Part shown: piece after piece, positions 10,515 to 39,037 of the stretch
Numbering within the stretch: position 1 is the first letter of the stretch
Layout: each line of letters opens with the position of its first letter
Source: a virus
DNA: 39,037 nucleotides
Virus record (IMG/VR): IMGVR_UViG_3300033991_000232
Coordinates: 1 to 39,037 of that record
Direction: 5' to 3' (one strand)
Notes under the pieces: generated by a model
Databases searched by the model: none
Seen by the model: the letters and a program-made list of their open reading frames with translations, nothing else
What the model was told of the DNA's origin: nothing
Made by a program: the position numbers and the translations under genes

Positions 10515-11477
10515 CTACAGCCGCTCAGCGCCTTCCGGCACCAGCCGGACAGGCCCGAACTCTGTCCGATGACCCCTGCACCAGTTGGGCATCTGGTCTG
10601 GCTCTCGGACCTCGATCCGCTCAACCTTGAACACGTAAGCCAGACGCACCGGCGGTTCGTATGCCCCCACCGATCGCCACCAGCCGTCATCATCGCACGT
10701 ATCCGTCAGCGAATCGAGCGTCTGCCAATCCACGCACCGCTCGCCATCCTCCTCGGCCCGCGCATAGTAGACCCTATAGTAAGCGAACGGCTCAAACACG
10801 TTCGCCTGCAGGATGACCCGCTGGGCCTCGCGCTCTGCCTCTGCGGCAGCCGCCCGCTCACGCGCCTGGGCATAGGCTTCTTTAATCTCCGGCACACTGG
10901 AGATCGAGTACGGCACGTGGTCATAGAGATGCTCAGGCAGCGGAAACTCGGTCACCGTCTCCAGTTCCGCTATGACCTCGCGGATTCTCGCCTCTTGCTC
11001 AGCCTTTGCCTGACGCTCACGATCCGCCTTTGCCTTGGCGATGCGTTCCTCCGCCGCCACAAACGCCGCCGCGACCTCAGCATCTTCCCCCAGGTCCCAG
11101 TCCCGGATCCGAGAACTGATCCAATCGGAGATAACAGTGCAATCGGCCAGTGCCTCCAGCACGCGCACCTTCCATTCCCCCCGGTCCACGTACCAGGCAT
11201 CTACCGAGTCAATCCAGTCCAGAACAACCTCCCCCTTGGCGTAGTATTGCCAACGTCTCGATCCATCATCGAACTGCCAGGTCTTACCACGGTAAGTAAG
11301 CTTGACGCACTCTACCGTGAACTCAGCCTGCAATTCGTCCAACAATGCCGCACCGACCTCGTTCTCCCAATGCTGGCGCAGCGCGGCGACCTTCTCCTGG
11401 ACAACACGCTCCTCGACTTGCCGCCGCTGCTCCTGGAGAAACTCGACCTCGGACCTCAACTGATCAATCGCGCTCAT
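10515..11477 (-). CDS. Coiled-coil protein of unknown function, 320 residues
   Basis: The N terminus is a coiled coil (LRSEVEFLQEQRRQVEERVV). A compact region rich in Trp and Tyr follows (LTYRGKTWQFDDGSRRWQYY). Further on come a highly charged Ala/Glu/Lys/Arg helix (AEERIAKAKADRERQAKAEQ) and a last domain with Cys pairs. ATG 11477 overlaps the upstream stop as TGATG. The large size in a block of short genes suggests a structural or DNA-processing role, but I do not recognise a family. Confidence 0.65.
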   Translation of the reverse strand: MSAIDQLRSEVEFLQEQRRQVEERVVQEKVAALRQHWENEVGAALLDELQAEFTVECVKLTYRGKTWQFDDGSRRWQYYAKGEVVLDWIDSVDAWYVDRGEWKVRVLEALADCTVISDWISSRIRDWDLGEDAEVAAAFVAAEERIAKAKADRERQAKAEQEARIREVIAELETVTEFPLPEHLYDHVPYSISSVPEIKEAYAQARERAAAAEAEREAQRVILQANVFEPFAYYRVYYARAEEDGERCVDWQTLDSLTDTCDDDGWWRSVGAYEPPVRLAYVFKVERIEVREPDQMPNWCRGHRTEFGPVRLVPEGAERL

Positions 11478-12670: not shown

Positions 12671-13375
12671 CTAAAGTGGCGGCCACCCAAACTCCTCTGG
12701 CCCATACAGATGCTCGTGATTCAGCCGGTCGTGGGCATACGGCTCCCGCACCGGCAGCCCCTCCAACGTCCGCCAGCGCTCCCACAGATGTGCCAGAAAT
12801 ACCTTCGCCATCTTGCGCATCGCCGCCCGATGGCGCCGAACCACCGGCCAGTCAGGCCGATTCGCATCGTAGTACTCACGGGCACTATCGTACACGCGCC
12901 GGTACGGACTGCCCACCTTCATGAAACTCCCGGCGATGAGCAACACCACGACCTTCAGACGCTTGTTATAGTGCAAGCGCTCCCCGGCCGTCGGCCGTTC
13001 GCGCTCGCCGTCCACCACCCCCATCCCGCAATAGCGCCACAGCGCCGAAACCGTCGAGGCGCGCTCGATCTCGATCGGCGCGACCAACTTGGCGGCCAGC
13101 ACCTCGCCGATCCCCTTGAGCGCCATCAAGTGCCCCATGATCGGCTCAGATTCGGCCAGGGCGCGCACCAGCGACCGGATATCGCCGTCCAGCTCGTGCT
13201 CCAGGTCGAGGAATCGCTCATACCACCGCGCCAGAAGCTCTTCCTGCTTACTGCCCCCGGCGTCATCCGACCCACGCACCACCGCATCGAGGCGATTCCC
13301 GAATTGGATACGCGCCTTCTGGACCTGGCGGTCCCGCGTATCCACCAACGCCCTCAGTAACTCCTGTCCTTTCAT
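12671..13375 (-). CDS. Orphan IS110-type C-terminal (Transposase_20/HhH-like) domain protein
   Basis: From ATG 13375 (ribosome site GGGGGAAGG) the protein has 234 residues. A coiled N-terminal part precedes a helix-hairpin-helix segment MALKGIGEVLAAKLVAPIEI and then SALWRYCGMGVVDGERERP, followed by a helical region. This matches the C-terminal domain of IS110/IS116/IS902 recombinases as I recall it. The N-terminal RuvC-like DEDD domain is missing and the expected SG near the active Ser reads PTAG. It is therefore unlikely to transpose by itself. A longer frame to 13537 would translate the 18-bp repeat array as hexapeptides and lacks a ribosome site. Confidence 0.65.
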   Translation of the reverse strand: MKGQELLRALVDTRDRQVQKARIQFGNRLDAVVRGSDDAGGSKQEELLARWYERFLDLEHELDGDIRSLVRALAESEPIMGHLMALKGIGEVLAAKLVAPIEIERASTVSALWRYCGMGVVDGERERPTAGERLHYNKRLKVVVLLIAGSFMKVGSPYRRVYDSAREYYDANRPDWPVVRRHRAAMRKMAKVFLAHLWERWRTLEGLPVREPYAHDRLNHEHLYGPEEFGWPPL

Positions 13376-13404
13376 TTTGCCTTCCCCCTTTCTGGGTATC
13401 TCAG

Positions 13405-13557
13405 ATTTTCGCTCTCGTAGTCTGGGCCTCTCAAATACCGTGGCTCGCTTCTTGCTCTTGGTCTTCTCCACAGCTTGGGCTCGCTCTGCGACTTTGGTTC
13501 TCTCGTTCATTCTGGCTCGCTCTTCCACTTTGGGCAACTTACCATCGCTGGCTCGCT
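13405..13557. repeat. Array 1: 9-mer units at exactly 18-bp spacing
   Basis: Nine units begin at 13405, 13423, 13441, 13459, 13477, 13495, 13513, 13531 and 13549, always 18 bp apart. TGGCTCGCT recurs at 13441, 13513 and 13549 (GGGCTCGCT at 13477). The units between vary (TGGTTCTCT, TGGTCTTCT, TGGGCCTCT, TGGGCAACT), and 13405 is weak. The nine spacer bases are unrelated. The array ends 30 bases before the start of the orphan transposase-domain gene. The rest of 13376-13588 holds no gene. Confidence 0.8.
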
Positions 13558-15752: not shown

Positions 15753-16157
15753 TTTCTCACCGCCATATGGAACTTATGGAACGTTGATATACCACTCGAC
15801 ATAACTGAAGTTCCATAAAACCAGACACTCATCTTGTTTATTAGTGCCCAAGACAAATGAAACCCATCTAACTCATATATACAAGTTACCAACGTTCCAA
15901 AGTTCCATACAACCTTGCTGCTTTCGCAGCGTACTCTAGCAGTGCAGGCAACTGGCGACACAGTAATCGTACTCATTCGGCAATAAACAAGATGATCATC
16001 TGGTTTTATGGAACTTATGGAACTTCGGGAACTTTGTACAGGGGTATAGAGGGGAAATATTTGTTTTTCCTCGAAAAACAAATTTTCGGCCCCGTATCCC
16101 CCGGATAAAGTTCCATAAGTTCCACAAGTTCCATAAAACAAGATGGTCATCTTAACC
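15753..16157. other. Repeat-dense non-coding region, candidate replication origin/operator
   Basis: This A+T-richer 405-base gap between the primase and the adenine methyltransferase holds about ten copies of TATGGAAC or its complement GTTCCATA. They start at 15766, 15775, 15810, 15894 (one mismatch), 15902, 16007, 16016, 16110, 16119 (one mismatch) and 16128; tandem copies are 9 bp apart. A ~33-bp imperfect inverted repeat joins 15810-15842 with 15981-16014, and a partial third copy lies at 16128-16152. A 10-bp hairpin lies near 16060-16083. An open frame (15749-16150) made of these repeats looks spurious. Iterons beside the primase gene suggest an origin. Confidence 0.6.
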
Positions 16158-19127: not shown

Positions 19128-19388
19128 TCATCCGCGCACACTCCGTTGCATTTGCTCTGCATCCAGGACTGCAACTAGCCGGTCACGAGCCTGGTCACAG
19201 TCATCCACAATCCGCGCCATCTCTCCATCGGCAAGCTGGACAATATGTCCCAGCTCGGGCACACGCCGATAGATGCGCCGGAGATGGGCAGCCAAGACAC
19301 CGGCTGCCTCTATTGCATCCTCCAGATGCACTGACGCTGTCTCCAGATTGTCAAGGCGCTGACTATCGGCTGCTGATGGTCTGCTCAT
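19128..19388 (-). CDS. Small helical protein, 86 residues
   Basis: From ATG 19388 the protein reads MSRPSAADSQRLDNLETASV and is a long amphipathic helix pair (LEDAIEAAGVLAAHLRRIYR and later DDCDQARDRLVAVLDAEQMQ). It overlaps the end of the upstream membrane protein gene. An upstream extension to 19511 would translate that gene's sequence in another frame and is rejected. The function is unknown. Confidence 0.6.
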   Translation of the reverse strand: MSRPSAADSQRLDNLETASVHLEDAIEAAGVLAAHLRRIYRRVPELGHIVQLADGEMARIVDDCDQARDRLVAVLDAEQMQRSVRG

Positions 19389-19728
19389 AGTCGGCCACGT
19401 CCTGCTGATCGTGACGCCGTTCGCGCAGCCACTCCACCAGCCGTGGCAACACTGTCCCAATGCCCGCCGAAACGGTGAGAAGCACGACCACTGACCACGC
19501 TTCCCACACATTCACGACTGGCGGTTTTGTCATCTCAGCATAGGCCGCCGCCCAGACTGCGTAGCCCGCCAGGATGCTGCCACACCCGTGAATGTAGGCA
19601 TACACACGCTTCAACCGCCCCGTCTTAGGGTCTGCTATCCCTGGCCAAATGGCCCAGGGAAACCAGTGTCCCACCATGTTCCCCAAGCCCACTAGCCCGC
19701 AGACTACTCCCTTCATAATCTCGTTCAT
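19363..19728 (-). CDS. Membrane protein behind array 2
   Basis: This 121-residue protein has hydrophobic segments near residues 6-28, 48-65 and 76-95 (WSVVVLLTVSAGIGTVL) and a charged soluble tail (WLRERRHDQQDVADYEQ). ATG 19728 follows GGGGGG; the GTG at 19731 is an alternative. It resembles small holin- or immunity-type membrane proteins, but its place between integrase and primase argues against lysis; a superinfection or membrane-linked role is possible. The periodic array at 19753-19833 ends 25 bases before its start codon. Confidence 0.6.
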   Translation of the reverse strand: MNEIMKGVVCGLVGLGNMVGHWFPWAIWPGIADPKTGRLKRVYAYIHGCGSILAGYAVWAAAYAEMTKPPVVNVWEAWSVVVLLTVSAGIGTVLPRLVEWLRERRHDQQDVADYEQTISSR

Positions 19729-19752
19729 CACATCCCCCCGCTTCTCAGAATG

Positions 19753-19833
19753 AGAGCCGCTCTATACTGCTGGTTCACTTCTACTACTTGGCTCGCTCGA
19801 GCTGTCTGGTTCTCTCCCCGATTTTGGCTGATA
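19753..19833. repeat. Array 2: 9-mer units at exactly 18-bp spacing
   Basis: Five units begin at 19753 (AGAGCCGCT, weak), 19771 (TGGTTCACT), 19789 (TGGCTCGCT), 19807 (TGGTTCTCT) and 19825 (TGGCTGATA, partial), each 18 bp from the next. Two of them are identical to units in array 1 six kilobases away. The array lies in the 220-base gap between the integrase stop and the membrane protein gene, which otherwise holds only a palindrome copy at 19936-19948. Confidence 0.75.
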
Positions 19834-19935
19834 ATCCCACACTTTGCCCGATTCGTGGTATACTATCCCACAAGGAGGCCAGGGATTGTGACTACTGCGG
19901 TTGCCCCCGTCGTGTCCGCCCTGGTCTCCCCCCAT

Positions 19936-33082: not shown

Positions 33083-33988
33083 CTAGTCCTGCCCGATGAT
33101 AAACCAGTGCACGGTCGTCTCCGTCGTACCCGCCGTGCTACCATCCGCCGCCCAGACCTTCAGCGTCGCGCTTGTACCCGAGACTGTGATAGTACAGATA
33201 GCATCGCTGGCAGTGCTATCCTCACCCAGCGTGCACAGGCCAATGGTGGGAGTTGTCACATTTGTCAACACGATGTTGTGTGTCTCGGTGAAGGACTCCG
33301 TACCCCAGTCAAATGCAAAGTCGGCCACATTGTAGCCCACCGGGTAAAAGTTTGATGCTCCATACTGCAATGTACTTCCCACGTCCAGCGTAGTCGTGAT
33401 GACTACTGCGTTTGCCGTGAGGGTTGCACTCACCCCCGCATCGCTGAATGAACTGGTCCCGCTAGAGGTCACGTCGCCTGTCAGGTCACCCGTCACGTTG
33501 CCCGTCAGATCGCCGATAAACCCGGTCGTAGCGGTGATCGTCCCGCTGGCGTCCACGTCGGCGAACGAACTGGTCCCGCTGGAGGTCACGTCGCCTGTCA
33601 GGTCACCCGTCACGTTGCCCGTCAGATCGCCGATAAACCCGGTCGTAGCGGTGATCGTCCCGCTGGCGCTTATATCCCCTGTCACATCCACATCCCCGGT
33701 GACCGTCACATCACCCGTAAAGTCCTGCCCACCACTGGATGTGATCGCGCCATCGTATGCCAGCCGCCAGCGCACCGTCCCGTTGTTGCGGAACTCGACG
33801 ATGTCACCCGTGCTGGTCTGATCCACCACCAGTTGATCCGTGTTGCTACCCGAGATCTCCATGCCAGTCCCTGCCAGGCTCATCACCTGGTAATCAGTGT
33901 GAGACTCCACAAAGGACAACCCCGCGATCAACAATGCCAGCCCGGCGATGATCGCCAGGCCGCACAGTGCCCACTTTTGCTTAGTCAT
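33083..33988 (-). CDS. Membrane-anchored or secreted repeat fibre-like protein
   Basis: This 301-residue protein starts MTKQKWALCGLAIIAGLALL, a hydrophobic signal/anchor, and continues with Thr/Gly/Asp repeats such as DVTVTGDVDVTGDISASGT. Two perfect 39-residue repeats (TITATTGFIGDLTGNVTGDL and the part after it) come from a 117-bp tandem duplication (~33451-33684). Such repeats form beta-helices in fibres. The C-terminal ~100 residues look like a compact beta domain. A signal anchor in a structural operon is odd; it may be a head fibre or a host-surface protein. ATG 33988 follows AAGGAGG. Confidence 0.65.
   Translation of the reverse strand: MTKQKWALCGLAIIAGLALLIAGLSFVESHTDYQVMSLAGTGMEISGSNTDQLVVDQTSTGDIVEFRNNGTVRWRLAYDGAITSSGGQDFTGDVTVTGDVDVTGDISASGTITATTGFIGDLTGNVTGDLTGDVTSSGTSSFADVDASGTITATTGFIGDLTGNVTGDLTGDVTSSGTSSFSDAGVSATLTANAVVITTTLDVGSTLQYGASNFYPVGYNVADFAFDWGTESFTETHNIVLTNVTTPTIGLCTLGEDSTASDAICTITVSGTSATLKVWAADGSTAGTTETTVHWFIIGQD
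33451..33684. repeat. 117-bp tandem duplication
   Basis: Two nearly identical 117-bp units (the second begins 33568) encode 39-residue repeats of the fibre-like protein. The near identity at DNA level implies a recent duplication or ongoing homogenisation. Confidence 0.85.
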
Positions 33989-37971: not shown

Positions 37972-39037
37972 CGCCCGCGCACCTCGCTTAGCGCCTTGCC
38001 CAGGTAATCGCCCTCGCTGACGACGATCCCGTGAAGGTCGCGGCAACCATTGACCCGGCCCCAAGGTACCTCGAGGGGCCGCTGACACACCAGACTATCC
38101 CGCACCGTAGACCACACCACCACCCACTCACCAGACGCCAACAGCACAGGCCGCGTGTAGCACCGGCAGCCGGGATGCGCCGGTGCCTTGAACGCCGTCT
38201 TCGGCAACCCCACCGCCTGGCGCACCAGATCGTTGGCCTCGTCATACGCCCGCGTGACCTCGGTCGCGGCGATGAGACTTGCCCGCCCCTTGCCGTATGT
38301 CGGCGCAAGCGCCTTCACCAGGTCAGGCAGCGCCCCCCCCGTCTCCACCCACGTGGCCACCGTCTCCCGCGTGGCCACCCGCGTGGTCTCGGTGATTCCC
38401 TTGATGAGCTTCCCGACATATTCCCGCGCCCAGCGCGCCGCATCCGCGTTTACGAGCGCCCAGTCCGCCCCCCCCGCGAATGCGGCCATCGCTTCCTCAA
38501 TCACCGTCACCGACAGGCCTGTCACATGCTTGAGCACCTGCGCCAAAAGCACCTGCTTGAGTGCCTCCTGCTCAGCCGCCCAGAACGCCGCATCCGTCCA
38601 ATCACCCTGCGCCCGTATCAAAGCCAAGATGCGCTCCTGTTGCTCTTTCAGAAATGCCCGCATCTTGCCCGCGATCTCGGCCTCAATCGCCGCCCGCTCT
38701 GCGTCGTGCCCACCCTCGGCCAATTCCGCCAGCTCGGGCTCTGCTCCCCCGCTCCCCTCCTCCCCCGCTCCCCCGCTCGCCTGCTCACCTGCTCCCCCGC
38801 TCGCCTGCTCACCTGCTCCCCCGCTCCCCTGCTCCAACACCGGCATGCCCGTGCGCCGCCTGAGCCAGTTCGTATCCTCTGGCTGCCAGTCCAGTAGGTC
38901 CTTGACCTGCTGGAGCCAGTTACCGAGCTGGCCCAACGCCGGTTTTTCCACACGACTATGAGTCACGCGCGGATACGCCTGCAGACCAGGAAAAGAGTTG
39001 TACGCCATCAGTCGCGGCACCCCGAACCGGTTGACGA
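37968..39037 (-). CDS. MuF-like head morphogenesis part of the portal-MuF fusion; runs off the right edge
   Basis: This is the 3' part of the portal gene beginning at 1223. After the portal end (LMAYNSFPGLQAYPRV) comes a GGAGEQAS octapeptide repeat linker, a charged helical region and the MuF domain (TRETVATWVETGGALPDLVK, SLIAATEVTRAYDEANDL). The zinc-type HPGCRC is at residues 619-624 of 687. In Mu the two proteins (gp29 and gp30) are separate. A MuF-type protein is carried in the head in few copies; fusion fixes it to the portal ring. Confidence 0.82.
   Translation of the reverse strand, partial: VNRFGVPRLMAYNSFPGLQAYPRVTHSRVEKPALGQLGNWLQQVKDLLDWQPEDTNWLRRRTGMPVLEQGSGGAGEQASGGAGEQASGGAGEEGSGGAEPELAELAEGGHDAERAAIEAEIAGKMRAFLKEQQERILALIRAQGDWTDAAFWAAEQEALKQVLLAQVLKHVTGLSVTVIEEAMAAFAGGADWALVNADAARWAREYVGKLIKGITETTRVATRETVATWVETGGALPDLVKALAPTYGKGRASLIAATEVTRAYDEANDLVRQAVGLPKTAFKAPAHPGCRCYTRPVLLASGEWVVVWSTVRDSLVCQRPLEVPWGRVNGCRDLHGIVVSEGDYLGKALSEVRGR
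38761..38832. repeat. 24-bp tandem repeat in the portal-MuF linker
   Basis: Units of 24 bp (GCTCCCCCGCTCGCC and the bases after it) occur about two and a half times, encoding GGAGEQAS. The contig end falls directly beside it, so the copy number may be collapsed or variable. Confidence 0.75.
38809..39037. repeat. Terminal overlap of a circular contig, right copy
   Basis: This is the second copy of bases 1-229, with A at 38936 for G at 128. See the left copy. Confidence 0.93.

What the first reader, a model, noticed from the sequence alone, without database searches (positions are those of the whole stretch)
19753..19833. Array 2: the same 18-bp-spaced 9-mers upstream of a membrane protein gene
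Five units, including TGGCTCGCT and TGGTTCTCT identical to array 1, again exactly 18 bp apart and ending 25 bases before a start codon. Two independent placements in the same position relative to unrelated genes imply a trans-acting factor, protein or RNA, that recognises the register. This copy is in non-coding DNA, which argues that array 1 is also non-coding.
Basis: seen in the sequence. Interest (0 to 1): 0.8.

Follow-up and report, generated by a model that had tools for sequence, protein, structure and literature searches.

The report
Second guide-RNA array in a TIGR-TasA phage
The regular 18-base repeats are a tiny two-guide TIGR array, part of a recently described RNA-guided DNA-binding system; its effector protein is encoded 6 kb away in the same phage, and the array sits beside the phage's integrase gene, which raises a testable question about what nuclease-free TIGR systems do.

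Summary
The repeats are real and are not an operator. On the minus strand, 19829-19758 is a complete 72-nt TIGR dual-repeat array: truncated edge AGCCA, spacer, loop AGAGAACCA, spacer, edge AGCGAGCCA, spacer, loop AGTGAACCA, spacer, truncated edge AGCG. That is exactly two 36-nt tigRNAs. All 32 fixed positions of the array layout match; the best of 20 shuffled windows has 10-12 mismatches. Array 1 (13553-13410) is a four-guide array just upstream of tasA (12671-13375), a nuclease-free Tas (Nop-domain) protein confirmed by sequence and by fold. The same edge repeat occurs in the experimentally studied TIGR array of Salicola phage CGphi29 and in more than 100 viral contigs, always on the tas strand. 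New here: array 2 lies 6 kb from tasA, directly downstream of the integrase and within the leader of a small membrane-protein gene. A sister phage keeps the surrounding genes but lacks array 2. At least nine other contigs have arrays more than 2 kb from tas, and one (L016) shows the same order: integrase, attachment site, array. No target was found above chance. Most likely function: extra guides used in trans by TasA to bind, not cut, target DNA. New member of a known kind, in an unusual placement.

The parts
19758..19829 (-). array 2: 72-nt TIGR dual-repeat array = two 36-nt tigRNA units
   Evidence: 0 mismatches to a 32-position array layout; truncated ends AGCCA / AGCG at the family boundary
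19794..19829 (-). predicted tigRNA 2.1: AGCCA-AAATCGGGG-AGAGAACCA-GACAGCTCG-AGCG (8-nt guides AAATCGGG / GACAGCTC in the SpTIGR-like 10+8 register)
   Evidence: 36-nt processing rule from PMC12045711
19758..19793 (-). predicted tigRNA 2.2: AGCCA-AGTAGTAGA-AGTGAACCA-GCAGTATAG-AGCG (8-nt guides AGTAGTAG / GCAGTATA)
19807..19815 (-). loop repeat 1 AGAGAACCA
   Evidence: AGAGAACC is the commonest loop in 1148 units of related arrays (388 of 1148)
19789..19797 (-). central edge repeat AGCGAGCCA, predicted processing site AGCG|AGCC
   Evidence: identical to edges of array 1 and of the published SpTIGR array
19771..19779 (-). loop repeat 2 AGTGAACCA
13410..13553 (-). array 1: TIGR array of four 36-nt units (edge repeat from 13557), in the leader of tasA
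12671..13375 (-). tasA, 234 aa, solo Nop-domain Tas protein without a nuclease domain
   Evidence: PDB sequence hits TasH 3.4e-20 and TasR 1.8e-16, fold match TasH 9w04 TM 0.86, Pfam Transposase_20 in all 11 aligned relatives
19363..19731 (-). 122-aa hydrophobic, probably membrane protein directly downstream of array 2; no family match
   Evidence: conserved in L130, L131, L132
19949..21076 (-). tyrosine integrase, ends 119 nt before array 2
   Evidence: PF00589 2.4e-35, phrog_1 5.6e-46
19903..19931 (-). 29-bp stretch next to the integrase stop, 1 mismatch to L130; candidate attachment-site core (inference)
   Evidence: attB search in 249 genomes of the class of Ornatilinea apprima was at chance level

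Best explanation
Array 2 is a second, tas-distal TIGR array of a phage TIGR-TasA system. Shown: repeat identity, 36-nt unit structure, truncated ends at the family boundary, same strand as tasA, a Tas protein encoded in the same genome, non-coding position between integrase and membrane gene. Inferred: the array is transcribed (probably as the leader of the membrane-protein mRNA), a host RNase cuts within the edge repeat in a TasA-dependent way, and two 36-nt tigRNAs load onto TasA dimers together with the four from array 1. Each RNP would bind a DNA site whose top strand reads spacer A followed by the reverse complement of spacer B. Having no nuclease, TasA would bend and occupy the site, blocking transcription or replication of a target, most likely another mobile element, or regulating a chromosomal site.
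For: 72 nt with 0 of 32 mismatches versus 10-12 in shuffles. Alternating edge/loop repeats identical to array 1, with the edge repeat identical to the published, experimentally processed SpTIGR array (PMC12045711). In 84 and 91 array ends of relatives the 5' end keeps only AGCCR and the 3' end only AGCG; array 2 has exactly these ends. TasA: profile hits to TasR 5.8e-31, TasH 4.6e-30, IS621 8e-6; AF2 pLDDT 85.5 and Foldseek hits TasH E 3.8e-12, TasR 4e-9. Same repeats next to tas in L002, L123, L130. Array and tas on the same strand 302:0. Other phages carry distal arrays.
Against: No transcription or processing data; no promoter or terminator found by a simple scan around array 2. No target above chance in self, sister or related contigs or in viral contigs (2 and 0 exact hits against 1 in a control orientation). 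Two units is at the small end for TIGR arrays (most often 5 to 15 in the paper).
Confidence: 0.87

Rival explanations
1. The repeats are TIGR in origin but array 2 is a relic copied or translocated from a tas-linked array, not used by TasA.
For: Only two units; absent in the sister phage L130; no target found.
Against: No decay: both ends, both loops, the edge and every 18-nt spacing are intact. Its guides are not copies of guides in array 1 or in L130.
Confidence: 0.07
2. A cis-acting DNA or leader operator: tandem sites for a phage repressor or RNA-binding regulator controlling the membrane-protein gene.
For: Lies just before a start codon; array 1 also lies just before a gene.
Against: In relatives arrays with the same repeats lie downstream of tas, sometimes ending in a terminator; the 9-nt intervals are hypervariable while the units alternate with a 36-nt period; units are absent in L130 while the gene stays.
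Confidence: 0.03
3. Arm-type binding sites of the integrase in attP.
For: Array starts about 119 nt past the integrase stop; in L016 a distal array also follows integrase and a tRNA-derived attachment site.
Against: The same repeats sit beside tasA 6 kb away; L130 has a 70%-identical integrase without the repeats; most arrays in relatives are beside tas rather than an integrase.
Confidence: 0.02
4. TIGR array whose guides serve integration or excision: TasA-tigRNA bends a site near attP or attB and helps the integrase, an idea raised for TasA by its discoverers. (A functional variant of the best explanation, so not exclusive of it.)
For: Order integrase, attachment site, array in the window and in L016; PMC12045711 discussion.
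Against: No match of the array-2 guides to the att region or elsewhere in the window above chance; array absent in sister L130; only 8 integrase hits were available for comparison. Regions beside att are common sites for phage cargo in general.
Confidence: 0.1

Closest known systems
TIGR-TasH of Salicola phage CGphi29 (SpTIGR; Faure et al. 2025, PMC12045711)
   Same: Edge repeat AGCGAGCCA identical, loop AGACAACCA close to AGAGAACCA, 36-nt period with 10-nt repeats and 8-nt spacers; related Tas protein (29% over 97%)
   Different: SpTas carries an HNH nuclease and its array lies next to the gene; here the Tas has no nuclease and there is an additional array 6 kb away
TIGR-TasA (solo Nop; Flavonifractor plautii FpTIGR, PMC12045711)
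   Same: Nuclease-free Tas with a dual-repeat array
   Different: Repeat sequences not compared here; a distal array next to an integrase is not described in the paper's main text
IS110/IS621 bridge-RNA transposases
   Same: Shared Transposase_20/Nop fold
   Different: No DEDD domain here, arrays instead of a single bridge RNA; transposon ends were not looked for
Plasmid or phage iterons and repressor stoperators
   Same: Short direct repeats in fixed register
   Different: Two alternating repeat types, hypervariable spacers, truncated ends at a unit boundary, linked Tas gene
CRISPR arrays
   Same: Repeat-spacer guide RNA array
   Different: 8-12-nt dual repeats, split guides, no Cas proteins among the genes examined

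Membership tests
TIGR dual-repeat array | Two distinct alternating 8-12-nt repeats separated by about 9-nt spacers | tested here: met
TIGR dual-repeat array | Unit of 36 nt | tested here: met
   72 nt = 2 x 36
[quoted passage not shown]
   TATC|AGCCA and AGCG|GCTCT, same boundary as 84 and 91 related array ends
TIGR dual-repeat array | Box C/D-like motifs shared by edge and loop repeats | tested here: met
   AG....CCA in both repeat types
TIGR dual-repeat array | Followed by a rho-independent terminator (typical, not universal) | tested here: not met
   None found at array 2; arrays 1 and 2 run into a gene instead; the paper gives it as typical (PMC12045711)
TIGR dual-repeat array | Upstream or downstream of a tas gene | tested here: inconclusive
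   tasA is on the same strand in the same genome but about 6 kb away; array 1 is adjacent
TIGR dual-repeat array | Processed into 36-nt tigRNAs bound by Tas | not testable with these tools
   needs RNA sequencing or pull-down
Tas protein (TasA) | Nop domain related to TasR/TasH/IS110 | tested here: met
Tas protein (TasA) | No HNH or RuvC nuclease domain | tested here: met
   234 aa aligning to the Nop part only; no other Pfam hit
Tas protein (TasA) | tigRNA-guided DNA binding | not testable with these tools
   biochemistry needed
Iteron or operator array | Conserved position relative to the regulated gene or origin in relatives | tested here: not met
   absent before the same gene in L130
Integrase arm-type sites | Present in relatives with the same integrase | tested here: not met
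   L130/L171 integrase 70% identical, no repeats

The most novel reading that the evidence does not exclude
Att-proximal TIGR arrays form a distinct guide module tied to lysogeny. Placed between attP and the first lysogenic gene, the array would end up at one end of the prophage after integration, so its expression would be set by integration state and its tigRNAs would steer TasA either to the attachment region or against competing elements only in the lysogen.
Probability: 0.12. Interest if true: 0.8.

Novelty: new member of a known kind. Interest (0 to 1): 0.58.

Why it matters
TIGR systems were described in 2025, and what the nuclease-free TasA systems do and target is open. This phage offers a minimal case: one small TasA, four guides next to it and a separate two-guide array beside the integrase that a sister phage lacks. 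Distal arrays recur in at least ten of about 88 tas-bearing contigs, so the guide repertoire of these phages is not confined to the tas locus and searches limited to the tas neighbourhood will miss guides. The contrast between the window phage and L130 makes the role of an att-proximal array directly testable.

Tried and rejected
Self-targeting: best matches of 1697 guide pairs to their own held contig DNA are no better than shifted pairs or wrong orientations. All-against-all exact or one-mismatch 8+8-nt matches in 2.4 Mb (both strands) of related loci: no excess at any gap. Targets among sister phages: no excess. Exact array-2 target sites in viral contigs: 2 and 0 hits, control orientation 1; one hit (L161) lies at an integrase 3' end but this is chance level. 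attB search for the conserved stretch in 249 genomes of the class of Ornatilinea apprima: 2-mismatch hits only (8, against 4 for the reversed control). Rfam has no matching family; the hits were artefacts of hairpin DNA at 16004-16136. Coding reading of array 1: the upstream extension of the tasA ORF (TTG at 13537) is just an open frame through the array, because 36 is a multiple of 3.

Full report
Observation. The units at 19771, 19789 and 19807 are exactly 18 bp apart, with partial units on both sides. The unit pattern occurs nine times in the window against 2.3 expected, and no shuffle of 100 reaches nine. Array 1 (13423-13557) has the same register. All surrounding genes of interest are on the minus strand; read on that strand, the units alternate between an edge type AGCGAGCCA and a loop type, mostly AGNGANCCA, so the true period is 36 nt.

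Identification. The gene directly downstream of array 1 matches the IS110 C-terminal domain (Pfam Transposase_20, just below its cut-off; PHROG 'transposase'). Alternating short repeats, 9-nt variable intervals, a 36-nt period and an IS110-like RNA-binding protein are the hallmarks of TIGR-Tas systems (Faure et al. 2025, PMC12045711). [quoted passage not shown] RNAs of 36 nt start and end in the middle of edge repeats; arrays begin and end with truncated edge repeats; TasA is the Nop-only form without nuclease.

Tas protein. The 234-aa product (12671-13375) hits TasH (3.4e-20) and TasR (1.8e-16) in the PDB by sequence. A profile of 11 relatives hits TasR 5.8e-31, TasH 4.6e-30 and IS621 8.3e-6. 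The AlphaFold2 model (pLDDT 85.5) matches TasH 9w04 with TM 0.86 and E 3.8e-12, TasR 9mty with E about 4e-9, and IS621 more weakly. No nuclease domain is present, so it is a TasA.

Array 2 as a TIGR array. 91 ORFs in these loci and the window match a Tas HMM, and the array strand equals the tas strand 302 times to 0. In array ends of relatives the first edge slot keeps only its last five bases (AGCCR, 86-98%; 84 ends) and the last slot only its first four (AGCG, 86-90%; 91 ends). This puts the unit boundary at AGCG|AGCC. Array 2 reads TATC|AGCCA ... AGCG|GCTCT, so it is exactly 72 nt, two full 36-nt units, 19829-19758. A 32-position description of this layout fits with no mismatch; the best site in each of 20 shuffled windows has 10-12 mismatches. 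The layout used edges and ends from relatives; the loop consensus was chosen after seeing the window, so the zero is slightly flattered. The published SpTIGR array of Salicola phage CGphi29, processed into 36-nt RNAs in the paper, has the same edge repeat and a 10-nt repeat plus 8-nt spacer register. The G that ends most 'spacers' here (82-85%) suggests that this family also uses 10+8.

Comparison with relatives. L002 (64% TasA identity) and Ornatilinea apprima L123 (52%, a Chloroflexota bacterium by my own knowledge) have arrays with the same repeats just downstream of tasA; that of L123 ends in a terminator. In the genome that holds L123 only one array is found. Sister phage L130 (81% identical primase) keeps integrase, membrane gene, primase and tasA in order. 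It has a longer array of about 11 units before tasA, but no repeats between integrase and membrane gene. Alignment shows array 2 as extra sequence between a shared TAGTATACCAC element and the start of the membrane gene. Array 2 was therefore gained in this lineage or lost in L130, and it is not needed for that gene to be kept.

Distal arrays are recurrent. Among 88 contigs with a detected tas, ten (the window included) have an array more than 2 kb from it, up to 21 kb, within the limited flanks held. Genes beside distal arrays include integrase, helicase and terminase. In L016 a three-unit distal array follows an integrase and a tRNA-Leu(CAA) 3' half at about 2690-2765, which I read from the sequence as the attachment core (ARAGORN does not call it, as expected for a partial gene). 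The window has the order integrase, conserved 29 bp (candidate core), array 2. Two cases are suggestive, not proof; only eight integrase hits were available.

Function. As TasA lacks a nuclease, the likeliest action is guided DNA binding and bending that blocks transcription or replication of a target, or regulates a site, as its discoverers suggest. Attempts to find targets failed: no excess of self, sister or cross-contig matches over controls, and only chance-level exact sites in viral contigs. The lack of self-targets argues, weakly, for foreign targets. The target layout (spacer A, then reverse complement of spacer B) was derived here from the cleavage geometry reported in the paper and was not read from a figure. 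An integration role is possible but unproven.

Conclusion. The finding is real. It is a new member of the TIGR-TasA kind with an uncommon, tas-distal, integrase-proximal second array.

Noticed in passing
L173 (Mycobacterium phage Rufus) 3547-4594; 74 Mycobacterium phage records: A protein annotated 'transposase' (gp73) matches TasR (1.1e-14) and TasH; the 340 nt before it hold several strong hairpins in tandem (z = -4.0), resembling the stem-loop form of TIGR arrays. This may be a tractable TasA model in M. smegmatis.
   Followed up: partly
L172 (Microcystis phage Mvi-JY20) 20675-21030: About ten-unit dual-repeat TIGR array (edge ATGCGAGCCA, loop ACGAAACCC) with a terminator just downstream of a 'hypothetical protein' 38% identical to the window TasA.
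   Followed up: partly
L016:1531-3047: Integrase, tRNA-Leu(CAA) 3'-half fragment (attachment site by sequence) and then a three-unit TIGR array, about 8 kb from tas.
   Followed up: partly
window 15760-16146: Dense direct and inverted AAGTTCCAT / TATGGAACTT repeats in a lower-GC gap beside the primase gene: candidate replication origin; L130 has hairpin-rich DNA at the same place (10658-10837).
   Followed up: no
window 19903-19931: 29-bp stretch after the integrase stop with one mismatch to L130, part of an inverted repeat: candidate attP core; attB not found in 249 genomes.
   Followed up: partly
window 13376-13537; L002:10688-10774: TIGR arrays can stay open in frame because 36 is a multiple of 3, so gene callers may extend tas ORFs into them and create false repeat peptides.
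   Followed up: yes
window 33446-33668 and 38741-38835: 117-bp tandem duplication (98% identical) and a 24-bp repeat array, probably inside structural genes.
   Followed up: no
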